Assembly (NCBI GenBank): GCA_963383645.1
Contig: OY726563.1
Location: forward strand, 38,779,831 to 38,843,830
Direction: 5' to 3'
From: Muscardinus avellanarius
Taxonomy: Eukaryota; Chordata; Mammalia; Rodentia; Gliridae
DNA: 64,000 bases
Part shown: in pieces, positions 1 through 64,000 of the stretch
Position numbering within the stretch: position 1 is the first letter of the stretch
Layout: every line of letters starts with the position of its first letter
Program-made: the position numbers and the translations under genes
The notes under the pieces: model-generated
What the model saw: only the letters and a program-made list of their open reading frames with translations
Databases searched by the model: none
What the model was told of the DNA's origin: nothing

Positions 1-624
1 GCCAGGTTGCACGTTCTCCTATGGTGTGATATCTCTGCCACCGCCATTCCCCCACTGGGTCAAGTCTGAGGGAGTACAGTACTGGGATTTCTTCTCTGTG
101 GCCCGCAATTTGACTCACTGTTCTTGAGTATGCAGATGTAGCTGTACTGGACTCGTTGAATTCACTGCTACTGCCGCCGCCGGTAACAATATGGCGCCGC
201 TGTTACGCCCTCGGCCGTGAGGCTGGCATATTTTTTCTTCTCTGGTTTTGAGTTCCACTCTGAGTCCCTGCAGCATGTGCTGAGCTCAGCCACTGGGAGC
301 TTTAGATGCTTCCTGCGCTGAAAGATCCCACCTGGCTGTTCCGCAGTGGCTTACCTTGGCTTGCTGTAGCCGTCCGGTGAATTCGCCGCTGCCACCGGCA
401 GTATGGCGCTGCTGCCATGTCCTCGGGCGTGAGGCCGGTGTATCTCCTCTGTGGCTCTGAGCTCTGTTCTCAGTCTGCTTTCTCTCTGGAGCCTGGTGAT
501 TTTTTTGTTTCTCTGGTGATGGTGTTTTCTGGCTATGAAAGGCGCTGGTTTTGTGGTAATGGAGATTGGTTATTAGCGGGGCTCTTAAGCCCCGCTTTTC
601 TCGGTCGCCATCTTCCCGGAAGTC
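1..624 (-). mobile_element. L1 5'UTR (partial, promoter half of an L1)
   Basis: Reading the minus strand, the element begins at about 624 with the same terminus as the other L1s here (GACTTCCGGGAAGATGGCG) and runs to the window edge. The edge lies about 175 nt upstream of where ORF1 would start, judged against the copy at 14344-16075. It is GC- and CpG-rich and contains two imperfect tandem units of about 212 bp (compare the ATGGCGC motifs near 191 and 403). Only the 5'UTR is visible, so whether it belongs to a full L1 or to the ORF2-less chimeric type cannot be judged. Confidence 0.9.
606..614 (-). promoter_or_regulatory. YY1-like site at L1 5' end
   Basis: The minus strand reads AAGATGGCG about 10 nt from the L1 5' terminus. 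A YY1 site at the equivalent place in human L1 is known to fix the transcription start. The same motif is intact at 16056-16064 (minus), 25482-25490 (plus) and 61279-61287 (plus), and mutated near 22018 (minus). Confidence 0.6.
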
Positions 625-14024: not shown

Positions 14025-14316
14025 CAAGTTAGGGAGCAAATAGAATATAGGAGAGACTCTACACAAAGGAGGAGAAACTGTAGATGAATGAAGAAGGCAA
14101 CCTAACTGAGGGAGACTGGAGGGGAAAAGCGGGAAACACCTCAATAGACATGATGTAGATACACAGACTTATCAAAGGCAATCACTGTGCTGAGCAGGGG
14201 AAGGAGGGAGGGGTGAGGAATGGGCCGGGCTCTGGGGAGGGCTCAATGAAAGATACATACATGTATGCCTCTATCACCTTGAACTTCATCAAGATGTATG
14301 GTTACAATGCACATAA
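14025..14316 (+). mobile_element. L1 3'UTR fragment, forward, inside the composite insertion
   Basis: Ends with the L1 3' pattern (ATGTATGCCTCTATCACCTT, then AAGATGTATGGTTACAATGCAC), oriented opposite to the adjoining ORF1. It is therefore antisense within the inserted transcript. Its A-tail merges with the junction to the ORF1 unit at about 14311. Confidence 0.75.
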
Positions 14317-14343
14317 ATAATGAATCTCCACAGATAACCAATC

Positions 14344-15264
14344 TTAGTTGTCTGTTGGATGGAAAATCTTGTTTCTCTGGTTCTGGTGAGTGTTACCTAT
14401 TTCTTCTTTGTAGTTAATCTCTTTGAGTATTTTCTCTAGCGCTGGTTTTGTAAACATAAATTCCTTCAGTTTCTGTTTGTCATGGAAGCTTCTTATTTCT
14501 TCATCTAATTTGATAGAAAGTTTTGCTGGGTAGGAAATTTTTGGCTGGAAGTTGTTTTCTTTCAGAGTTTGGAATATGTTACTCCAAGCCCTTCTGGCTC
14601 TCATGACTTGCTTTGGGAAGTCTGGAGTGATTATAATTGGTTTGCCTCTGAATGTCACTTGGCCCTTTGTTTTTGTTGCCTTTAAGATTCTCTGCTTGGC
14701 TTCCACATTGGTCATTTTGAAAATTATGTGGCATGGGGATCCTCTTCTCCGATCCTGTCTAAAGGGAGTTCTATAAGTTTCCTGGACCTGTGTATCAACC
14801 TCTTGCTCTATGTTTGGAAAATTTTCTGCTATTACTTCCTTGAAGAGATTGTTGATCCCTTTGGTTTCACTTTCTTTTCCCTCCTCTATTCCAATTATTC
14901 TTAGGTTAGCTCTCTTAAAATGGGCCCATATTTCTTCAATGTCAGATTCCTGCTGTCGGATAATTTTTTCTAGATTAGAAACTATGCGTTCATTTTTGGA
15001 TTGCTCATCTTCTAAGAGCGAGATTCTGTTCTCCATGTGGTCTAATCAGTTGTTTGTGCTTTGAATTGAGGCCTTTACTTCATTAATTGCATCCTTTATC
15101 TCTTTTTGGCTCTCTCTCAGTTCTTTTCGAAGCACCTCTATTATTTCTACAGTTATTTTCCTGATTAGATCTTCTAGAAATCTCTGATTTTCTTTTTTAT
15201 CAGGTTCTGATGTTGTGGGGTTGTGGGCGGCATTCATTGCTCCAGTATTATTCCTCTTTCCCAT
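14344..15264 (-). pseudogene. ORF1 (LINE-1): L1 ORF1, one premature stop
   Basis: L1 ORF1 encodes the RNA-binding chaperone that packages L1 RNA in cytoplasmic particles. The frame runs from ATG (complement of 15262-15264) to TAA (complement of 14344-14346), 306 codons plus stop, with one in-frame TGA (complement of 15046-15048). The N-terminal part (about residues 1-120) is heptad-rich and glutamate/lysine-rich, as expected for the coiled coil (ENRISLLEDEQSKNERI). The RRM-like centre follows (NLRIIGIEEGKESETKG), then the C-terminal domain (PDFPKQVMRARRAWSNIF). Related ORF1 proteins are somewhat longer (about 338 aa in human, 370 in mouse). In the copies at 20328-21245 and 61269-62331 the stop codon position is CGA, so the TGA looks like CpG decay. 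Otherwise the frame is fully open, unusual for a copy without ORF2. Confidence 0.9.
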
Positions 15265-16075
15265 GATTTCGGAGGTTTGTGCCTTCTCTGGGTTCTTCCC
15301 TTGGGTCACTATGACTTCACTTAAGGTGTTCTGGATCTCGACTCAGTAGTATCTCAGACCCCACTACTCCTTTACTGGGTTTTATCACAGAGTCTCCGAC
15401 CCAGGGAGTCAATAGAGGCTGCTTTAAACTATGGGGGGTGCCAGGTTGCACGTTCTCCTATGGTGTGATATCTCTGCCACCACCACTCCCTCACTGAGGT
15501 ACAGTGAGGTACCTCACTGTACCTCAGTGAGGTATAGTACTGGGATTTTTCCTCTGTGGCCTGCAATTTGACTCACTGTTCTTGAGTACGCAGATGTAGC
15601 TGTACTGGATTAGGCGAATTCACTGCTGCTGCCGCCACTGGTGGCAATATGGCGCCGCGGCCACGCCCTCGGCCATGAGGCTGGCGTATTTTTTCTTCTC
15701 TGGTTTTGATTTCCACTCTGAATCCCTGCAGCGTGTGCTGAGCTCAGCCACTGGGAGCTTTAAATCCTCTCTGCGCCAAAAGATCCCGCCTGGCTGTTCC
15801 GCAGCGGCTCACCTCGGCTTGCTGTAGCCGTCCGATGAGTTCGCCGCTGCCGTCGGCAGTATGGCGCTACTGCCGTGTCCTCGGGCGCGTGTGTCTCCTC
15901 TGTGGCCCTGAGCTCTGTTCTCAGTCCACATTCTCTCTGGAGCCTGGTGGTTTTTTGTTTTTCTGGTGATGGTGTTTTCTGGCTATGAAAGGCGCTGGTT
16001 TTGTGGTAATGGAGATTGGTTGTTAGCAGGGCTCTTAAGTCCCGCTTTTCTCGGTCGCCATCTTCCCAGAAGTCT
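15265..16075 (-). promoter_or_regulatory. L1 5'UTR / promoter
   Basis: CpG-rich sequence with two diverged monomer-like units (ATGGCGC motifs near 15650 and 15859) and an intact AAGATGGCG YY1-like site near the 5' end (minus strand, 16056-16064). It would drive transcription leftwards through ORF1. It contains the palindrome at 15489-15532. Confidence 0.85.
15489..15532. repeat. 44-bp perfect palindrome
   Basis: Bases 15489-15532 equal their own reverse complement, with the centre between 15510 and 15511 (GAGGTACC core). The other L1 5'UTR copies at the same place (about 40-75, 21460-21500, 61800-61850) have no palindrome, so it arose in this copy, probably by fold-back template switching. 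Confidence 0.9.
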
Positions 16076-19270: not shown

Positions 19271-19428
19271 ATTTTTTTAATTTTTTATTGGTGCACTGTA
19301 TTCATACATCATAGTGGGATACAAACTTTTGTAGACATACATGCACACATCACCCAGTCAGCCCCCACCCGATCCCCACCCCATTCCCTCCCTATCCCTC
19401 CTTCCCATGCTTGGCTTAGTGGTTGACA
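19271..19428 (-). mobile_element. 3'UTR and poly(A) of chimeric element copy 1
   Basis: Complement of an L1 3' terminus with the subtype-specific end TTTGTATCCCACTATGATGT, differing from the TTTTTACCCCAATTTGATGT type of the two autonomous-type L1s in the window. The same subtype occurs at 52040-52121 and 62332-62497. Confidence 0.8.
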
Positions 19429-19639
19429 TCTAGTATTATAGCATTTTATCCTAAATTAACAATGATAATCTCACCTAACAGTTTCATTTGTCTGATACCA
19501 AGCTTTTGATAACTTAAAGATAACATTTCAATATTTTGTTTTGTTTGCTTTCTTTCTTACCAGAGAATATTTTTTCTTTTTTTTTTAGGTGAAACTATCA
19601 TATATTTATATATTTATTTTTCAGAAAAAAATCTATCCT

Positions 19640-20300
19640 AATATGGAATATGGACTCTAGATACCCAAAACGACCTCGAAGAGGAACAAAGCTAGAAGAT
19701 ATATATTTTCTGATTTCAAACCATATAAAGCTACAATAATTGAAACAGTGTAGTACTGTTTTAAAGGCAGATATATAAACCATGGGAGTTCAATAAAAGC
19801 CTAGAGCTAAATTCTTCCCTATATTATCAAGTTATTTTTCACAAGGTTTCCACGAACATTTGGTGGGGGAAATAATAATCTTTTAACTCAATATTGTTGA
19901 AAAATAATAATAACATGAAAAGGAATAAAATTGAACACTTACCTAATCCCATATACAAATATTAACTCAAAATAGATAAAAGACCTAAATATAAATCTTA
20001 AGACTATAAACTTTTAGAAGAAAATCTGGGTCATAAAACCTCACAACATTGAAATTGGGAGTGATTTCTTGGATATGATTTCAATGGCACAGTCAACAGA
20101 AGAGTATACAAACTCCCTAAGAAATAAAAAAAATTGTATATCCAAAGACAATGTAAACAGTTAAAAGTTACTGATTGAATGGGATAAAATATTTCTAAAT
20201 GCTATATCTGAAGGTATAAAGTAATATTCCAACTAGAAATCCTAAAAATTAACAATAAAAGCAAACAATACAATTTAGAGATAGATAAAGGCTCACAAAA
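19640..20300 (+). mobile_element. Inverted old L1 ORF2 fragment within chimeric copy 1
   Basis: Forward-oriented and diverged. It aligns by eye with the ORF2 C-terminal part of an older mammalian L1 (ACAATAATTGAAACAGTGTA, then GGCACAGTCAACAGAAGAGT). It is antisense within the chimeric transcript, so it adds no ORF2 coding capacity. The adjacent stretch 19429-19640 is an AT-rich spacer of unknown origin that, on the minus strand, contains a splice-donor-like CTG|GTAAGA. Confidence 0.75.
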
Positions 20301-20327
20301 GTAATGAATCTCCACAGATAACTAATC

Positions 20328-21245
20328 TTAGTTGTCTGTTGGATGGAAAATCTTCTTTCTCTGGTTCTGGTGTGTGTTACCTATTTCTTCTTTGTAGTTA
20401 ATCTCTTTGAGTATTTTCTCTAGCGCTGGTTTTGTAAACATAAATTCCTTCAGTTTCTGTTTGTCATGGAAGCTTCTTATTTCTCCATCTAATTTGATAG
20501 AAAGTTTTGCTGGGTAGGAAATTTTTGGCTGGAAGTTGTTTTCTTTCAGAGTTTGGAATATGTTACTCCAAGCCCTTCTGGCTCTCATGACTTGGTTTGG
20601 GAAGTCTGGAGTGATTCTAATTGGTTTGCCTCTGAATGTCACTTGGCCCTTTGTTTTTGTTGCCTTTAAGATTCTCTGCTTGGCTTCCACATTGGTCATT
20701 TTGACAATTATGTGGCATGGGGATCCTCTTCTCCGATCCTGTCTAAAGGGAGTTCTATAAGTTTCCTGGACCTGTGTATCAACCTCTTGCTCTATGTTTG
20801 GAAAATTTTCTGTTATTACTTCCTTGAAGAGATTGTTGATCCCTTTGGTTTCACTTTCTTTTCCCTCCTCTATTCCAATTATTCTTAGGTTAGCTCTCTT
20901 AAAATGGGCCCATATTTCTTCAATGTCAGATTCCTGCTGTCGGATATTTTTTTCTAGATTAGAAACTATGCGTTCATTTTTGGATTGCTCATCTTCTAAG
21001 AGCGAGATTCTGTTCTCCATGTGGTCTAATCGGTTGTTTGTGCTTTGAATTGAGGCCTTTACTTCATTAATTGCATACTTTATCTCTTTTTGGCTCTCTC
21101 TGAATTCTTTTCAAAACACCTGTATTATTTGTGCAGTTATTTTCCTGATTTGATCTTCTAGAAATCGCTGATTTTCTGTTTTATCAGGTTCTGATGTTGT
21201 GGGGTTGTGGGCATTCATTGCTCCAGTGTTATTCCTGTTTCCCAT
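20328..21245 (-). pseudogene. ORF1 (LINE-1): L1 ORF1 of chimeric copy 1, one premature stop
   Basis: The frame runs from ATG (complement of 21243-21245) to TAA (complement of 20328-20330), 305 codons plus stop. One in-frame TGA is the complement of 21111-21113; the paralogue at 14344-15264 has CGA there, so again CpG decay is the likely cause. Downstream the coiled coil, RRM-like core and C-terminal domain are uninterrupted for 230 codons from an internal methionine (complement of 21018-21020). The role would be RNA packaging and nucleic-acid chaperoning for the element's own RNA, with reverse transcription supplied by another L1's ORF2p. That last point is inference from known L1 biology and the HAL1 precedent. 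Confidence 0.9.
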
Positions 21246-22033
21246 GATTTCGGAAGTTTGTGCCTTCTCTGGTTCTTCTCTTGGGTCACTATGACTTCAC
21301 TTAAGGTGCTCTGGATCTCGAGTCTGTAGTATCTCAGACCCCACTACTCCTTTACTGGGTTTTATCACAGAGTCTCCGACCCAGAGAGTCGATAGAGGCT
21401 GCTTTAGACTGTGGGGGGTGCCAGGTTGCATGTTCTCCTATGGTGTGATCTCTGCCACTGCCCCTCCCCCAGTGGGTCAAGTCCCAGGGAGTACAGTACT
21501 GGGATTTCTCCTCTGTGGCCCGCAATTTGACTCACTGTTCTTGAGTACGCAGATGTAGCTGTACTGGATTCGGTGAATTCTCTGCTGCTGCCGCCGGTGA
21601 CAATATGGCGCTGCTGCTACGCCCTCGGCCGTGAGGCTGGTGTATTTTTTCTTGGTTTTGATTTCCACTCTGAATCCCTGCAGCGTGTGCTGAGCTCAGC
21701 CACTGGGAGCTTTAGATTTTACCTGCGGCGAGAAATCCCGCCTGGCTGTTCTGCAGTGGCTCACCTTGGCTTGCTGTAGCTGTCAGGTGAAGTCACTGCT
21801 GCCGCCGGCAGTATGGTGCTGCTGCCGTGGTCTCGGGCGTGAGGCCGGTGTATCTCCACTGTGGCTCTGAGCTCTGTTCTCAGTCCGCTTTCTCTCTGGA
21901 GCCTGGTGATTTTTTGTTTCTCTGGTGATGGTGTTTTCTGGCTATAAAAGGCGCTAATTTTGTGGTAATGGAGATTGGTTGTTAGCAGGGCTCTTAAGCC
22001 CTGTTTTTCTCGGTCGACATCTTCCTGGAAGTC
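21246..22033 (-). promoter_or_regulatory. L1 5'UTR / promoter of chimeric copy 1
   Basis: CpG-rich, with two monomer-like units (ATGGCGC near 21605 and a decayed ATGGTGC near 21812) and the L1 5' terminus at about 22033. It would direct transcription leftwards into ORF1. Confidence 0.85.
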
Positions 22034-25471: not shown

Positions 25472-26778
25472 GACTTCTGGGAAGATGGCGATGGAGAAAA
25501 GCGGCACTTACAAGTCCCGCTAACAATCGATCTCTATTACCACAAAACCAGCGCCTTTCAGACCCAGAAAACACCATCAGCAAATAAATAAAAACTGTAA
25601 ATACAAGGGAAAGAGAAAAAGAGGGCTGGAAAAACGAGACACAAGAAAGAAACCAGCCCGCAGTGCCGCAGCCGCCACAGCGCGGAGCGGCCAGAGCCGC
25701 AGCGAGGAGCGGCGTGGGCTACCTCTTCCTTAGCAGCACCAGGCTCCAGAGAGGAGGGAGACTCAGAACAGAGCTCAAATTCAGAGAGCAGTTACACCAG
25801 CCTCACAGACTAGGACACAGCAGCAGCGCCTTACTGCCAGCGACAGTGGCGAGTTCACTGGCCGGCTTCAGACCAACGCACTCAACCAGCCACCAGGAGC
25901 CAGAGAGGAGGGGTGGACAGTGAGCCGAGGTGAACAGCTGCTGAACAGCCGGGCGGCAGTCAGCATTTTTTTCGGTGCAAGGAGCGTCTAAAGCTCCCAA
26001 GGGCCGGGTTCAGCACACCCCGCAGGGACTCAGCAGAGCTCAAAACCAGAGAAGAACTACACCAACCTCATGGCCAAAGACGCAGCAACAGCGCCTTACT
26101 GCTGGTGGCAGCGGCGAATTCACCAGATGGCTCAAGACCAACACACTTGACCATCCACCAGGCTCCAGAGAGGAGGGGTGGACAGTGAGCCAAGGAGAGC
26201 AGTTGCTGAACAGCTGGGTGGCAGTCAGGAGTTTTTTCAGCACATGGAACATCTAAAGCTCCCAAGGGCCGGGCTCAGCACACCTGGCAGGGACTCAGAG
26301 CAGAGATCAAAACCAGAGAAGAAATACGCCAGCCTCACGGCTGAGGGCATGGCAGTGCTGTCATATTGCCAGCAGCAGCAACTGCAAATTCATTGAGTCC
26401 ACTACATCTCCATAGCACACTCAACAACCGTGAGTCAAATTGCGGCACCTAGGGGAGAAATCCCAGTACTGCACTCCCAGGGACTTGCGCAGATAGTCTC
26501 CCTGGGTCAAAGATTTTAGCAGTCCAACCCAGTGGGAGAGTGGCAGTGGCAGAGATATCACACCATAGTCACAACTCCCCACTGGAGAACGCCCAACGTG
26601 GCACCCCCCCCCCACTATCTAAGGAGCCTCGATTGACTCCCTGGGTCTGAGACTTTGAGATACAACCCAGTAAAGGAGTAGTGGTGACTGAGATACCACG
26701 GACTCGCGATCCAGAGCACCTTAATTGAACTCATAGTGACAAGGGAAGAACCCAGAGAAGGCACAAAATTCCAAAATC
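25472..26778 (+). promoter_or_regulatory. L1 5'UTR with ~265-bp tandem monomers
   Basis: About 1.3 kb, longer than in the other copies (about 780 bp). Two consecutive units repeat with a period of exactly 265 bp at three checkpoints: CAGCGCCTTACTG at 25824/26089, GGGTGGACAG at 25911/26176 and AAGCTCCCAA at 25991/26256. A YY1-like AAGATGGCG lies at 25482-25490. Monomeric promoters of this general kind are known from mouse L1s. Confidence 0.8.
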
Positions 26779-27695
26779 ATGGGAAAGGGAAATAAAAATT
26801 GAGCAGTGAATGTCCACAACCCTACAACATCAGAACCTGATAACACAGAAATACAGAGATCTCTAGAAGATCAAATCAGGAAAATAACTTTAGAGATAAT
26901 AGAGGACTTTCGAAAAGAATTCAGAGAGAGTAAAAAAGAAATAAAGGATGCAATCATTAAAATAAAGGCCTCATATTCAAAGTATAAACAATGGATTATA
27001 CTACATGGAGAATAGAATCTCTCTCTTAGAAGATGATCATTCCAAAAATGAACGCATAGTTTCTAATTTAGAAAAATAAATCTGACAGCAGGAATGTAAC
27101 ATTGAAGAAATAAGGGCCCATTTTAAGAGAGCTAACCCAAGAATAATTGGAATAGAGGAGGGAAAAGAAGGTGAAACCAAAGGGATCAATAATCTCTTCA
27201 AAGAAGTAATAGCAGAAAATTTTCCAAACAGAGCAAGAGGTTGATACACAGGTCCAGGAAATTTATAGAACTACCTTTAGATAGGATCAGAGAAGAGGAT
27301 CCCCACGCCACATAATTGTCAAAATGACTAATGTGGAAGCCAAGGAGAGAATCTTAAAGGCAACAAAAACAAAAGGCCACATGACATTCAGAGGAAAACC
27401 AATTAGAATTACTCCAGACTTCCCAAACCAAGTTATGAAAGTCAGAAGGGCATGGAGTAACATATACCAAACTCTGAAAGAAAACAACTTCCAGGCATAA
27501 ATTTCCTACCCAGCAAAACTATATATCAAATTAGATGGAAAAATAAGAAGCTTCCATGACAAACAGAAACTGAAGGAATTTATGTCTTCAAAACCAGCAC
27601 TAGAGAAAATACTCAAGGAGATTAACTGCAAAGAGGAAATGGGTAATACACGCCAGAACCAAAGAAACAAGAATTCCCATCCAGCAGACCACTAA
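26779..27695 (+). pseudogene. ORF1 (LINE-1): L1 ORF1, frame-broken
   Basis: ATG at 26779 and TAA at 27693-27695. A TGA follows after seven codons (ATG GGA AAG GGA AAT AAA AAT TGA), and there are further stops and frameshifts, for example around 27000-27080 and 27230. The total length (917 nt) is not a multiple of three. Recognisable pieces of the coiled coil, RRM-like core and C-terminal domain remain. It is more damaged than the ORF1s of the ORF2-less elements. Confidence 0.85.
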
Positions 27696-27740
27696 GCAAA
27701 GAAGAATAAACAGTATCTCAAAGAGAAATAAGATCTTAAC

Positions 27741-30700
27741 ATGTTGGGAATTAAAAATTATCTCTCTATAATCACACTGAATGTAAACGGCTTCAACTCC
27801 CCCAATAAAAAGACATAAAGTGGCAAAATGGATTAAAAAACAGAATCCATCCATCTGCTGCTTACAAGAAACACACCTTACAAGTAAAGATAGGAACAAA
27901 CTCAAGGTAAAGTGCCAGAGCAAGGTAATCCATGCTAATGGTACTCGAAGACAAGCAGGAATAGCAACTATGATATCAGACAAGTTGGACTTCAAACCCA
28001 AACTTATTAGAAGAGACAAAGAAGGTCACATTTTACTGGTAAAAGGAATAATCCAGCAAGAGGAAATAACAATAATCAACATCTATGCCCCAAACATAGG
28101 GGCAGCTACTTTCATAAATCAAACTCTTTGTGATATGAAGTCACACATAAATCCCAACACAATAATACTGGGAGACTTCAACACACCTCTCACAATACTA
28201 GACCGATCTTCCAGACAATGTGTCAGTAAAGATGCCTCAGAACTAAAGAACACCATTAACCAAATGGACCTGTTGGACACATATAGAATATTTCACCCAA
28301 CTACAGCAGAGTTTACATTTCTCGCAGCTGCTCACGGAACCTTCTCCAAAATAGATCACATCCTGGGACACAAAATGAGCACTAGCAAATTTAAAAAATG
28401 TTACATAGTTCCCTGTGTCATTTCAAACCATAATGGAATGAAACTAGAAATCAACTATAAGAAGACCCAGAGAAACAACATAAACATGTGGAGAATGAAC
28501 ACCACACTTCTGAATGAAGAATGGGTCATAGAAGATGTAAGAGGTGAAATCAAGAAATTTCTAAAAACAAATGAAAATAAAGAAACAACATATCAAAACC
28601 TCTAGGACACTTTGAAGTCAGTATTAAGAGGAAAATTTATAGCACTGAGTGCTCACATAAGAAAAACAGAAAATCTTCAAATAAATACCCTTATGACACA
28701 CCTCAAAGCCCTTGAACAGCAGGAACAATTAAACCCCAAAGCCAGCAGAATACAGGAAATTATTAAAATTAGAGCAGATATTAATGAAATAGAGAATAAA
28801 AAATACAGAAAATTAACAAAACCAAAAGCTGGTTTCTTGAAAAATTAACAAGATAGATAAACCACTAGCCAACCTTACTAAAAAAAAAAGAGAGAGAATC
28901 AACCCAAATTATGAAGATAAGGGATGAAAAAGGAGACATTACTACTGACAGCGTAGAAATCCAGAGGATTATCAGAAACTACTTTGAAAAACTATACTCC
29001 AACAAAATGGAAAATCTGGAGGAAATTGACAACTTCCTAGATAAATACAACCTTCCTAAACTGAGTCAAGAAGATATAGAACACTTAAACCAACCAATAA
29101 CAATCAAAGAGATTGAAACAGCAATAAAGAGCTTACCATCAAAGAAAAGCCCAGGACCAGATGGTTTCCTAAGTGAATTCTATAAAACCTTTATAGAAGA
29201 GCTAACCCCAATACTCCTCAAACTATTTTGCGAAATAGAAAAAACTGGCACTCTCCCAAATACATTCTATGAAGCCAACATCACACTAATACCCAAACCA
29301 AATAAAGACAGTTCAAGGAAGGAAAACTACAGGCCTATATCTCTGATGAACTTGGATGCAAAACTATCAAACAAAATACTAGCAACACGCATTCAAAACC
29401 ACATCAAGAAAATCATTCACCATGACCAGGTAGGGTTCATCCCAGGGATGCAAGGTTGGTTCAATATATGAAAATCAATCCATGCAATTCATCATATAAA
29501 CAGAATCAAAGACAAAAACCACATGATCATTTCAATAGACCCTGAAAAAGCATTTGATAAAATTCAACATCCATTTATGATAAAAACACTGCAGAGAATT
29601 GGAATAGAAGGAACATATCTCAACATTATGAAGGCAATCTACAATAAGCCCACTGCCAACATCATTTTAAATGGGGAAAAACTTCAAGAATTCCCCCTAA
29701 AAACTGGAACGAGACAAGGATGTCCACTATCACCACTTCTCTTCAATATAGTACTAGATACTCTAGCCAGAGCAATAAAGCAAGAAAAGGAAATCAAAGG
29801 AGTACAAATAGGAAAAGAAGAACTTAAGCTTTCACTCTTTGCAGATGACATGATACTATATTTAGAAAACCCAGCAAACTCAACCAAAAGGCTTATAGAA
29901 CTGATCAACAAATTCAGCAAAGTATCTGGATACAAAATGAATCTTAAAAAATCAGAAGCTTTCCTGTACACCAGCCATAAATCCACTGAAAAAGAAATTC
30001 AGAAAACACTTCCACTCAGCATCGCCCACAAAAAAATAAAATACCTAGGAATAAACTTGACCCAGGAGGTAAAAGATCTCTACAAAGAAAATTATAAAAC
30101 ACTGAAAAAAGAAATCGAAGGAGATCTTAGAAGATGGAAATATCTTCTGTGTTCATGAATTGGCAGAAAAAATATCATTAAAATGGCCATCCTTCCAAAA
30201 GTGATCTACAGATTTAATGCAATGCCCATTAAGCTACCAAGATCATTCCTCACAGACATAGAAAAATAAGTCCTTAAATTTATCTGGACTAACAAAAAGG
30301 CCAGAATAGCCAAGGTAGTTCTCAGCAACAAAAACCATGCAGGAGGAATCACAATACCTGACTTTAAACTATACTGCAAAGTCATTGTAATAAAAACAGC
30401 ATGGTACTGGCAAAAGAACAGATATATGGACCAATGGAGCAGAATAGAAGACCCAGAAAAAAGTCCACACACTTTCAGCCAATTGATTTTTGACAAAGAG
30501 GCCAAAAACATACACTGGAAAAAAGATAGCCTCTTCAACAAATGGTGTTGGCAAAACTGGTTAACCATATGTAGAAAATTGGAAATCAATCCCACTTTCT
30601 CACCCTGTACAAAAGTCAACTCACGATGGATGAAAGACTTGGAAATTAAACCAGAGACCTTGAACCACAGACAAATATTTCCTCAACAAGACCCCAAAGG

Positions 30701-31530
30701 CACAACAAATTAAAAGGCAAATCAATATGTGGGATTGCATGAAACTGAAGAGCTTCTGTTCAGCAAAGGAAACTATCAAGAACCTCAATCGAGTGCCAAC
30801 AGAATGGGAGAAGATTTTTGCCACCTACACCACCAATAGAGGACTAATATCTAGAATATACAGAGAACTCACGAAACTCAACAATAAGAAAACAAAGCAT
30901 CCAATAACAAAATGGGCAAATGAACTAAATAGACACTTTACAAAAGAAGAAATTCAAATGGCCAATAAATGCATGAAAAAATGCTCAACATCACTGGCAA
31001 TCAGAGAGATGCAAATCAAAACTACTCTGAGATTTCACCTAACTCCAACTAGAATGGCAATCATTCAAAACACAAACAACAACAGATATTGGTGAGGATA
31101 TGGAAAAGAGGGAACTCTAAGACATTGTTGGTGGGATTGCAAATTAGTGCAACCACTTTGGAAAACAGTATGGAGAATCCTCAGAAGAATGAGAACAAAT
31201 CTACCATTTGATCCAGCAATACCAATTCTGGGTATCTACCCAAAAGATAGGAAACCAAACTACCAAACTAATGCATGTGTATCTATTGTCATAGCTGCAC
31301 AATTCACCATAGCCAAAGTATGGAACCAGCCAAGATGTCCATCAACAGATGAATGGATTACAAAACTGTGGGATATGTACACAAAGGAATTCTACTCAGC
31401 CATCAAAAAAAAAAACTCAATTACATCATTTTCAGGGAAATGGATGGAACTGGAGGACATTATGCTAAGTGAGATTAGTCAGTTACAAAAAATAAGAAAT
31501 CAGATGCTTTCCCTAATATGTGAGTGTTAG
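27741..31530 (+). pseudogene. ORF2 (LINE-1): L1 ORF2 (endonuclease-reverse transcriptase), frame-broken
   Basis: ORF2p nicks target DNA and reverse-transcribes L1 RNA. ATG at 27741, TAG at 31528-31530, about 3.79 kb. The frame is broken at about 27810, 28603 (TAG), 28850-28910, 29469 and 30158, with more beyond. Domains in order: APE-type endonuclease (27820-28605, with QETHLTSKD, GDFNTPL and SKIDHILGHK), linker, RT (28911-30158, with [69 protein letters not shown] and the catalytic FADD at 29838-29849), and the C-terminal cysteine-rich region ([16 protein letters not shown] near 31130-31170). Catalytic residues are present, but the reading frame is not continuous. Confidence 0.95.
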
Positions 31531-31810
31531 GGAGAAATGTGTCATAGGAGGAACTCTTGAAAAAGGAAATCCTATAGAGGAACAAACAAGACAACCTAAA
31601 GGAGGAGAAAGGAGGGGGGAAGAGGAAAATCTCTAAAACACACAATGTACTTAAACATATTGAAGTCAACCACTAAGCCAAGCAAGGGAAGGAGGGACGG
31701 GGAGGGAATGTGGTGGGAATTGGGTAGGGGTTAAATCAGTGATGTGTACCTGTTTGTACACACAAGTTTTTTACCCCAATTTGATGTTTGAATATAATGC
31801 AGCAATAAAA
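31531..31810 (+). mobile_element. L1 3'UTR
   Basis: Purine-rich tract (GGAGGAGAAAGGAGGGGGGA near 31601), then CTAAGCCAAGCAAGGGAAGG, ending AATGCAGCAATAAAAAAATT with a polyadenylation-like AATAAA. Confidence 0.85.
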
Positions 31811-31895
31811 AAATTAAAAAAATAAAAATAAAAATAATACAAATAAAAATATTAAATCATGCTAAGTTAAATAAAATAAAATAAAATAATAAAAA

Positions 31896-61268: not shown

Positions 61269-62331
61269 GACTTCCGGGAAGATGGCGACCGAGAAAAGTG
61301 GGGCTTGAGAGCCCCGCTAACAACAAATCTCCATTACCACAAAATCAGCGCCTTTCAAAGCCAGAAAACAACATCACCAGAGAAACAAAAAAAATCACCA
61401 GGCTCCAGAGAGAAAGCGGACTGAGAACACGCCCGAGGACGCGGCTTCACGCCCGAGGATGCGGCAGCAGCGCCATACTGCCGGTGGCATGGGCGAATTC
61501 ACGGAACGGCCACAGAAAGCCGAGGGGAGCCGCTGCGGAATAGCCAGGCGGGATTTCTCGGCGCAGAGGGCATCTAAAGCTCCCAGTGGCTGAGCTCAGC
61601 ACACGCTGCAGGGATTCAGAGTGGAAATCAAAACCAAGAAAAAAAAATGCCAGCCTCACAGACGAAGACGTAGCAGCGGCGCCATATTGCCACCGGCGAC
61701 GGCAGCACCGAATTCACCGAATTCAGTACAGCTACATCTGCATACACAAGAACAGTGAGTCAAATTGCGGGCCACAGAGGAGAAATCCCAGTACTGTACT
61801 CACTGGGACTTGACCCAGTGGGAGAGGGGCGGTGGCAGTGATATCACACCATAGGAGAACGTGCAACCTGGCACCCCCCACAGTCTAAAGCAGCCTCTAT
61901 CAACTCTTTGGTCGGAGACTCTGTGATACAACCCAGTAAAGGAGTAGTGGGGTCTGAGATACTACTGACTCGAGATCCAGAGCACCTTAAGTGAAGTCAT
62001 AGTGACCCAAGGGAAGAACCCAGAGAAGGCACAAACTTCCGAAATCATGGGAAACAGGAATAACACTGGAGCAATGAATGCTCACAACCCCACAACATCA
62101 GAACCGGATAAAACAGAAAATCAGAGATTTCTATAAGATCAAATCAGGAAAATAACTGTAGAAATAATAGAGGTGCTTCGAAAAGAACTCAGAGAGAGCC
62201 AAAAAAGAGGTAAAGGATGCAATTAATGAAGTAAAGGTCTCAATTCAAAGCACAAACAACCGATTAGAACACATGGAGAACAGAATCTCGCTCTTAGAAG
62301 ATGAGCAATTCAAAAATGAGCGCATAGTTTC
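61269..62331 (+). mobile_element. L1 5'UTR and ORF1 start, interrupted
   Basis: Canonical 5' end with intact AAGATGGCG (61279-61287), a CpG-rich 5'UTR of about 778 bp, and ORF1 from ATG at 62047. It breaks off within ORF1 at about codon 95, where the poly(T) of an opposite-strand chimeric element begins. The rest of this L1 presumably continues beyond the window. Confidence 0.85.
62047..62331 (+). pseudogene. ORF1 (LINE-1): L1 ORF1 N-terminus, interrupted
   Basis: Begins MGNRNNTGAMNAHNPTTSEP-like. An early in-frame TAA follows QRFL (near 62131), and a one-base insertion occurs near 62200. The visible part covers only the N-terminal region and the start of the coiled coil, then the chimeric element interrupts it. 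Not functional. Confidence 0.8.
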
Positions 62332-64000
62332 TTTTTTTTTTAATTTTATTTTATTGGTGCACTGTTTTCATACATCATAGTGGGATACAAACTTTTGTAG
62401 ACATACATGCACACATCGCCCAGTCAGCCCCCACCCGATCCCCACCCCATTCTCTCCCCATCCCTCCCTCCCATGCTTGGCTTAGTGGTTGACATCTAGT
62501 ATTATAGCAATTTATCAAAAATTAAAAATGATAATCTCACATAACAGTTTCATTTGTCTGATACCAAGCTTTTGATGACTTAAAGATAACATTTCAATAT
62601 TTCTTTTTGCTTTCTTTCTTACCAGAGAATATTTTTTTCTTTTTTTTAGGTGAAACTATCATATATTTATTTTTCAGAAAAAAATCTATCCTGATATGGA
62701 ATATGGACTCTAGATACCCAAAACAATCTCGAAGCAAAAACAAAGCTAGAAGATGTATATTTTCTGATTTCAAACCATATAAAGCTACAATAATTGAAAC
62801 AGTGTAGTACTATTCTAAAGGCAGATATATAAACCATTGGAGTTAAATAAAAGCCTAGAGCTAAATTCTTCCCTATATTGTCAAGTTATTTTTGACAAGG
62901 TTTCCACGAATATTTGGTGGTGGAAAAAATAATCTTTTAACTAAATATTGTTAAAAAATAATAATTACATGGAAAAGAATAAAGTTGGACCCTTACCTAA
63001 TCCCATATACAAATATTAACTCAAAATAGATAAAAGACCTAAATATACATCTTAAGACTATAAACTTTTAGGAGAAAATCTGGGTCATAAAACCTCACAA
63101 CATTGAAATTGGCAGTGATTTCTTGGTTATGATTTCAATGGCACAGGCAACAGAAGAGTATACAAACTCCCTAAAAAATAAAAAACATATTGTATATCCA
63201 AAGACAATGTAAACAGAGTTAACAGTTACTAATAGAATGGGATAAAATATTTCCAATTGCTATATCTGAAGGTATATTAATATTCCAACTAGAAATCCTA
63301 AAAATTAACAACAATAAAGGCAAACAATACAATTTAGAGATAGGTAAAAGACTAACATAAATAATGAATCTCCACAGATAACCAATCTTAGTTGTCCGTT
63401 GGATGGAAAATCTTGTTTCTCTGGTTCTGGTGAGTGTTACCTATTTCTTCTTTGTAGTTAGTCTCTTTGAGTATTTTCTCTAGCGCTGGTTTTGAAGACA
63501 TAAATTCCTTCAGTTTCTGTTTGTCATGGAAGCTTCTTATTTCTCCATCTAATTTGATAGAAAGTTTTGCTGGATAGGAAATTTTTGGCTGGAAGTTGTT
63601 TTCTTTCAGAGTTTGGAATATGTTACTCCAAGCCCTTCTGGCTCTCATGACTTGGTTTGGGAAGTCTGGAGTGATTCTAATTGGTTTGCCTCTGAATGTC
63701 ACTTGGCCCTTTGTTTTTGTTGCCTTTAAGATTCTCTGCTTGGCTTCCACATTGGTCATTTTGACAATTATATGGCGTGGGGATCCTCTTATCGGATCCT
63801 GTCTAAAGGGAGTTCTATAAGTTTCCTGGATCTGTGTATCAACCTCTTGCTCTATATTTGGAAAATTTTCTGCTATTACTTCCTTGAAGAGATTGTTGAT
63901 CCCTTTGGTATCACTTTCTTTTCCCTCCTCTATTCCAGTTATTCTTAGGTTAGCTCTCTTAAGATGGGCCCATATTTCTTCAATGTCAGATTCCTGCTGT
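62332..64000 (-). mobile_element. Chimeric ORF2-less L1 element, copy 2 (runs off the window)
   Basis: Same order as copy 1 at 19271-22033: poly(A)/3'UTR (62332-62497), AT-rich spacer (62498-62690), inverted old L1 ORF2 fragment (62690-63358, forward), the common 33-bp extension, then ORF1 from 63388 rightward. The distance from the left end to the ORF1 stop is 1056 bp here against 1057 bp in copy 1, with scattered substitutions and small indels. It is inserted into the ORF1 of a forward L1, a different target from copy 1, so the two are independent insertions. Confidence 0.85.
63388..64000 (-). CDS. ORF1 (LINE-1): L1 ORF1 of chimeric copy 2 (C-terminal part, open)
   Basis: The stop TAA is the complement of 63388-63390. 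The frame is open over all of the visible 204 codons up to the window edge, covering the RRM-like core (LRITGIEE, ESDTKGINNLF) and the complete C-terminal domain (PDFPNQVMRARRAWSNIF to IFHPTDN). The N-terminal third and start lie outside the window. This is the best-preserved ORF1 here and belongs to an element without ORF2. Whether the whole frame is intact is unknown. Confidence 0.8.
   Translation of the reverse strand, partial: QQESDIEEIWAHLKRANLRITGIEEGKESDTKGINNLFKEVIAENFPNIEQEVDTQIQETYRTPFRQDPIRGSPRHIIVKMTNVEAKQRILKATKTKGQVTFRGKPIRITPDFPNQVMRARRAWSNIFQTLKENNFQPKISYPAKLSIKLDGEIRSFHDKQKLKEFMSSKPALEKILKETNYKEEIGNTHQNQRNKIFHPTDN

What the first reader, a model, noticed from the sequence alone, without database searches (positions are those of the whole stretch)
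19271..22033. A compact ORF2-less chimeric L1 that has moved as a unit (copy 1)
In order on the minus strand: L1 5'UTR, ORF1, an inverted older-L1 ORF2 fragment, a spacer, and an L1 3'UTR with poly(A). The same order, junctions and spacing (1057 vs 1056 bp between left end and ORF1 stop) are found at 62332->64000 in an unrelated target. A structure repeated at two different targets cannot be a local rearrangement; it must have retrotransposed. The element has a promoter and an RNA-chaperone gene but no reverse transcriptase, so it should depend on ORF2p of other L1s. HAL1 elements are a known ORF1-only L1 type, but the inverted-ORF2 insert and L1-type 3'UTR here do not match what I know of HAL1.
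Basis: partly seen in the sequence, partly recalled or inferred. Interest (0 to 1): 0.88.

Follow-up and report, generated by a model that had tools for sequence, protein, structure and literature searches.

The report
ORF1-only L1 family lending its tail
The window holds copies of a very abundant jumping-gene family that kept only one of the two genes of its LINE-1 parent and must borrow the copying enzyme, and the last third of it also sits on a younger, complete LINE-1 lineage, which suggests that the parasite gave a piece of itself to a host element.

Summary
Window 22033->19271 (minus) is a 2.76 kb unit: L1 5'UTR, ORF1, ~900 bp holding an inverted old ORF2 fragment, L1 3'UTR. It belongs to a dispersed family ('E'): with up to 3 mismatches a 40-mer over the ORF1|insert junction occurs 18,108 times in this genome and one over insert|3'UTR 24,468 times, controls 0. 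Both junctions lie at the same place in 28 of 28 aligned copies; 21 of 28 score >=10 for a target-site duplication. The 305-codon ORF1 is uninterrupted in 16 of 28 mostly best-match copies, in 0 of 6 less biased ones. E is HAL1-like: L1 promoter and ORF1p in cis, ORF2p borrowed in trans (inferred). New: 781 places join L1 3'UTR start to E's last ~900 bp. These 'H' elements carry ORF2, their ORF1s lie in a young L1 clade away from E, and five L1s checked, one from that clade, have a plain 3'UTR: the tail most likely went from E to L1. Species and Repbase identity are untested.

The parts
19271..22033 (-). whole element, copy 1 of family E (5' end at 22033)
21246..22033 (-). L1-type 5'UTR (presumed promoter), begins GACTTCC
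   Evidence: about 80% like the 5'UTR of the L1 at 25472-31826
20328..21245 (-). ORF1 (305 codons in intact copies; in-frame stop after 44 codons here)
   Evidence: Pfam and PDB matches of intact copies
19431..20327 (-). insert, about 900 bp, joined directly after the ORF1 stop
   Evidence: canonical L1 goes on to spacer and ORF2 here; junctions in 28 of 28 copies
19685..20011 (+). old L1 ORF2 fragment, inverted relative to the element
19271..20175 (-). tail (E1859-2763) shared with the ORF2-bearing L1 lineage H
19271..19430 (-). L1 3'UTR with G-rich tract and poly(A)
   Evidence: G-rich four-run motif in 30 of 30 family members that include the 3' end
62335..64000 (-). copy 2, its 3' part (the 5' part lies beyond the window, L028)
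61269..62332 (+). host of copy 2: another E copy (E1-1073)
14310..16074 (-). E copy, 5' part E1-1740, holds the ORF1|insert junction
1..624 (-). 5' part of a further E copy (E1-2753 together with L029)
25472..31826 (+). ORF1+ORF2 L1 (canon26) with a plain 3'UTR, used as comparison; not part of the element

Best explanation
E is a HAL1-type non-autonomous L1. Shown: its structure, its dispersal in many thousands of places, one clade of ORF1s, TSDs and poly(A) in most copies examined, and a tail shared with an ORF2-bearing L1 lineage (H). Inferred: it is transcribed from its L1 5'UTR, its RNA encodes ORF1p that coats it in cis, and ORF2p of a co-resident L1 nicks the target and copies the RNA (target-primed reverse transcription). 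E arose once, when L1 5'UTR-ORF1 was joined directly after the ORF1 stop to ~900 bp of genomic DNA that holds an old inverted ORF2 piece and ends in an L1 3'UTR. Later a young ORF2-bearing L1 took E's last ~900 bp as its own 3' end, either because a 5'-truncated E landed ~60 nt past an L1's ORF2 stop and supplied the poly(A) end, or by template switching of the reverse transcriptase from E RNA to L1 RNA; this L1 (H) then spread.
For: Junction counts 18,108 and 24,468 with 0 in controls. Junctions at the same place in 28 of 28. TSD score >=10 in 21 of 28 against 95th/99th percentiles 9/12 in 756 mismatched pairs. ORF1 domains and human-type ORF1p structures; 16 of 28 ORF1s uninterrupted. ORF1 tree: E one clade 100/99, H in a young L1 clade 100/97. 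H junction in 781 places, ORF2 upstream in 7 of 8 distinct loci fetched, ORF1|ORF2 junction upstream in 19 of 37 listed places. Plain 3'UTR in five L1s, one of them (L088) in H's own young clade. H tails are less diverged among themselves than E tails (0.031 vs 0.047).
Against: Cis use of ORF1p is not shown: within E substitutions in ORF1 look near neutral (singletons N/S 2.56 against 3.01 expected; variants in 4 or more copies 13 N to 2 S), and 0 of 6 less biased copies have the 305-codon frame. The tail tree is rooted at its midpoint only, H attaches near the base of E, and one E-type row, L064, falls among H (explained as a mosaic). H does not come out as one group in the ORF1 tree, on weak branches. 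Only five L1 3' ends were judged; L093 and L094 were uninformative. No transcript or assay.
Confidence: 0.72

Rival explanations
1. E was made by deleting ORF2 from an autonomous L1 that already carried the tail (ancestor of H to E, not E to H).
For: E and H share the right-hand junction and the tail; E-to-H tail distance (0.074) exceeds the distance within either; H attaches near the base of E in a midpoint-rooted tree.
Against: H lies inside a young L1 clade while L1s branching between the E split and H, and L088 in the same clade, have a plain 3'UTR. E holds a further ~150 bp (E1706-1858) that H lacks; weak antisense-ORF2 similarity in one copy (L022, E=0.005) and recalled L1M sequence suggest that the old fragment runs on across E1859.
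Confidence: 0.15
2. ORF1 of E is a passenger: both ORF1p and ORF2p come in trans from full L1s, and ORF1 is intact only because copies are young.
For: Near-neutral N/S inside the radiation; 0 of 6 less biased copies with the 305-codon frame.
Against: 16 of 28 copies uninterrupted; on the E stem 8 N to 6 S, as on the L1 stem (9 to 7), against about 3 to 1 expected, though not tested for significance and the stem may include time before ORF2 was lost.
Confidence: 0.25
3. E and H got the tail independently, or by gene conversion between genomic copies, without a founding transfer event.
For: A local mosaic of E and H exists (L064), so exchange between copies happens.
Against: The joint is identical in 8 of 8 distinct H loci printed, and H tails form one clade apart from the mosaic L064.
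Confidence: 0.06
4. A local rearrangement or segmental duplication that happens to show two copies.
For: None beyond the two copies lying within 45 kb.
Against: Different targets and thousands of dispersed places, most examined copies with their own TSD.
Confidence: 0.01

Closest known systems
HAL1 (half-L1) retrotransposons
   Same: L1-derived, ORF1 without ORF2, poly(A), TSDs, dependence on L1 in trans; said to have arisen several times (passages of PMC5753468, PMC5322556, PMC4161310). HAL1 families are listed for guinea pig and marmoset (PMC3183009).
   Different: The insert with an inverted old ORF2 piece between ORF1 and an L1 3'UTR, the copy number (the human HAL1 figure quoted in PMC5322556 is nearly 2,100), and the tail shared with an ORF2-bearing L1. 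Whether known HAL1s have inserts of this kind was not tested; the founding paper is not held.
Autonomous L1 (as at window 25472-31826)
   Same: 5'UTR, ORF1 (89% nt identical over 1094 bp) and 3'UTR (82%).
   Different: E has no ORF2 in sense; the insert starts directly after the ORF1 stop.
SpIREs (spliced L1s; PMC5860796, abstract and passages)
   Same: Internally altered L1s that retrotransposed.
   Different: SpIREs lose 5'UTR or ORF1 parts by splicing; E keeps both and loses ORF2, with no GT donor at the junction.
Chimeric L1 insertions (PMC13174262, abstract and passages)
   Same: Reverse transcription or splicing can join L1 with other RNAs; the paper suggests that this may renew L1 5'UTRs.
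   Different: Here a whole family was founded, and the module moved is a 3' tail that comes from a non-autonomous L1. The paper's text does not contain the words HAL1 or squirrel.

Membership tests
HAL1 | L1-derived ORF1 present | tested here: met
HAL1 | ORF2 absent as a sense gene | tested here: met
   (antisense fragment only)
HAL1 | retrotransposed: poly(A) and TSDs | tested here: met
   TSD score >=10 in 21 of 28 with control; poly(A) or A-rich ends seen. Five score 5-6 (one of them, L005, through a wrong start in the script; one search shows 16 bp).
HAL1 | mobilised by L1 proteins in trans | not testable with these tools
   inferred from structure; no assay or transcript
HAL1 | sequence match to a named HAL1 family of Repbase or Dfam | not tested
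   neither library is on hand
Autonomous L1 | ORF2 with endonuclease and reverse transcriptase | tested here: not met
SpIRE | deletion bounded by splice sites within 5'UTR or ORF1 | tested here: not met
   5'UTR and ORF1 kept, no GT at the ORF1 junction

The most novel reading that the evidence does not exclude
A non-autonomous ORF1-only L1 parasite gave its chimeric 3' tail to an autonomous-type L1, founding a young ORF2-bearing lineage (H), so that host and parasite now end in the same RNA tail: modules can flow from parasite to host in LINE-1 systems, possibly changing how the two compete for ORF2p.
Probability: 0.62. Interest if true: 0.75.

Novelty: new variant of a known kind. Interest (0 to 1): 0.6.

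Why it matters
It gives a large and comparatively young set of copies in which one can ask why an L1 that lost its reverse transcriptase did so well, whether ORF1p acts in cis for such RNAs, and whether 3' ends matter in competition for ORF2p. The tail shared with an ORF2-bearing L1 makes exchange of RNA ends between host and parasite elements directly testable.

Tried and rejected
Rejected: local rearrangement or segmental duplication. Rejected: L064 as an E subfamily inside H; its diagnostic sites are of E type at 1925-1935 and of H type from 2032 on, so it is a mosaic at one place. Rejected: splicing as the origin of the ORF1 junction (no GT donor). The repeated end points near E2190 and E317 looked like subfamilies but were alignment breaks. 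dN/dS of 0.50-0.53 within E first looked like purifying selection; the neutral expectation from the insert's own spectrum makes it weak evidence. One search's ORF1 tree was superseded, which used 20 chosen E rows, 13 other L1 rows and 3 H rows (L079 and L087 gave no usable ORF1).

Led nowhere: searches with the insert and with the start of the canonical ORF2, a 40-mer search for a direct ORF2-bearing parent of E and one for the commoner canonical junction did not complete. The canonical count of 2,470 thus rests on the less common variant and is a lower bound, so I do not claim a ratio of E to full L1s. Paper searches on squirrel and HAL1 failed, one search was malformed, PMC2923044 is not held.

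Full report
Check. In the L1 at 25472-31826 ORF1 is followed by a short spacer and ORF2; in E foreign sequence starts directly after the ORF1 stop. About 330 bp of the insert match ORF2 in the opposite orientation (61%, E=4e-17), in 27 of 27 copies tested and in none in sense, with no hit in the shuffled control. Copy 2 has the same order and spacing but sits in another family member with about 1.16 kb of that host missing and no clear TSD, whereas copy 1 sits in an L1 ORF2. Window 1-624 and 14310-16074 are further members.

Family. The first genome search scored 40 of 14,078 candidates and listed 39 places besides copy 1; I fetched 26 of these 39 and, by position, copy 2 (L028). In these 28 loci the element spans most or all of E (18 of 28 from E1 to within 10 bases of its end in one match), at 91-95% identity apart from copy 1 itself, and both junctions lie at the same place in 28 of 28. 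TSD scores of 10 or more occur in 21 of 28, against 95th and 99th percentiles of 9 and 12 and a maximum of 14 in 756 mismatched pairs; some of the repeats are A-rich, and L005 was scored from a wrong start. Genome-wide, with up to 3 mismatches, the ORF1|insert 40-mer occurs 18,108 times and the insert|3'UTR 40-mer 24,468 times, controls 0. Of 6 copies picked by hand from the 100 exact ORF1-junction places listed, 6 reach the first ten bases of E, three with a gap in the 5'UTR. Of 10 copies taken every tenth from the 100 exact insert|3'UTR places listed (all on C1), 7 are full-length or nearly so, 2 are truncated and 1 is of type H; of 20 others from that list 18 have the ORF1 junction, L057 and L062 have not. 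By arithmetic the family is of the order of 1-3% of the 2.5 Gb genome (inference).

ORF1. The two intact ORF1s tested have the L1 RNA-binding and C-terminal domains; one was compared with solved structures and matches L1 ORF1p (2yko, E=4e-59). 16 of 28 copies are uninterrupted over 305 codons, but in the 6 less biased copies none has that frame; one, L033, is open for 332 codons from the ORF1 start. Within the radiation non-CpG singletons have N/S 2.56 against 3.01 expected from the insert's spectrum, variants in 2-3 copies 19 to 12, in 4 or more 13 to 2: near neutral, with no constraint shown. Against canon26 dN/dS is 0.40. The E stem has 8 nonsynonymous to 6 synonymous changes, the L1 stem 9 to 7: below the neutral 3 to 1, but few and not formally tested. 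Divergence is higher in the 5'UTR (0.079) and the insert (0.041) than in ORF1 (0.030).

The tail in an ORF2-bearing L1. One of the ten sampled loci, L040, has ORF2 just upstream of E1859; L067, the stretch upstream of it, shows 5'UTR, ORF1 and the rest of ORF2, with broken frames. The junction occurs 781 times, control 0; the joint is identical in the 8 distinct places printed, and 7 of these 8 have ORF2 upstream, L075 being cut shortly before the joint. Of 37 junctions listed on C1 up to 126.2 Mb, 19 have a listed ORF1|ORF2 junction 3.5-4.9 kb upstream. Apart from the mosaic L064, H tails form one clade (99%), attached near the base of E in a midpoint-rooted tree. They differ less among themselves (8 tails, 0.031) than E tails (57 tails, 0.047). 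In the ORF1 tree of 36 rows E is one clade (100/99) and H lies in a young L1 clade (100/97) together with L084, L085, L086 and L088; H itself is not resolved as one group there. Plain 3'UTRs are seen in five L1s: canon26 and the host of copy 1 in the window, L081 (branching early), L078 (only the last part was in the stretch) and L088, of the same young clade as H; L093 and L094 hold other insertions and tell nothing. The simplest history is one origin of the tail in E and one transfer to H. A truncated E landing in an L1 3'UTR, or template switching, would both do it; I cannot tell which.

Mechanism. Inferred from structure and from the L1 literature: transcription from the 5'UTR, ORF1p in cis, ORF2p in trans, target-primed reverse transcription. 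A passage of PMC4859970 says that ORF2-less L1 RNAs with ORF1 might be mobilised, citing an ORF1 reporter in cell culture and HAL1. The G-rich tract of the L1 3'UTR is kept in 30 of 30 members that include the 3' end; that such tracts favour L1 mobility is recalled. With a recalled rate of 2-3e-9 changes per site and year the mean tail divergences would mean spread roughly 8-12 Myr ago for E and 5-8 Myr for H (inference; sampled copies lean to close matches).

What is known. HAL1 is the kind (passages of PMC5753468, PMC5322556, PMC3183009, PMC8535693, PMC4161310). PMC3183009 lists HAL1 families among the youngest of guinea pig and marmoset, not among the five of ground squirrel. In the listings of the paper searches that were answered I saw no title or abstract start that describes this chimera or a HAL1-to-L1 tail transfer; the open library lacks the founding paper, and the squirrel/HAL1 searches failed. 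E may well be in Repbase or Dfam under some name.

Noticed in passing
window 14179-14324: An L1 3' end on the opposite strand lies where the family member at 14310-16074 stops (34 bp into the insert), probably a later insertion.
   Followed up: no
L028 1100-5459 (window 61269 onward): An E copy inserted into another E copy; about 1.16 kb of the host (E1074-2229) is missing and there is no clear TSD.
   Followed up: partly
L064 and L066 (G000:C1:6372533-6376300): A mosaic: E up to about E1935, H-type tail from E2032 on, then a second piece E2195-2631.
   Followed up: partly
L013 (G000:C2:143237160-143243560): An E copy with an internal duplication of E1878-2513 between good TSDs.
   Followed up: no
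L057 (G000:C1:5093985-5095325): A rearranged copy with E3-476 next to an inverted E1902-2421.
   Followed up: no
ORF1 of family E: Variants shared by 4 or more of 28 copies outside CpG are 13 nonsynonymous to 2 synonymous, more than the neutral 3 to 1; small numbers, but positive selection or exchange with L1s is possible.
   Followed up: no
L032, L033, L035, L041: A group of E copies with a gap or divergent stretch around E202-297 of the 5'UTR, perhaps a promoter variant.
   Followed up: no
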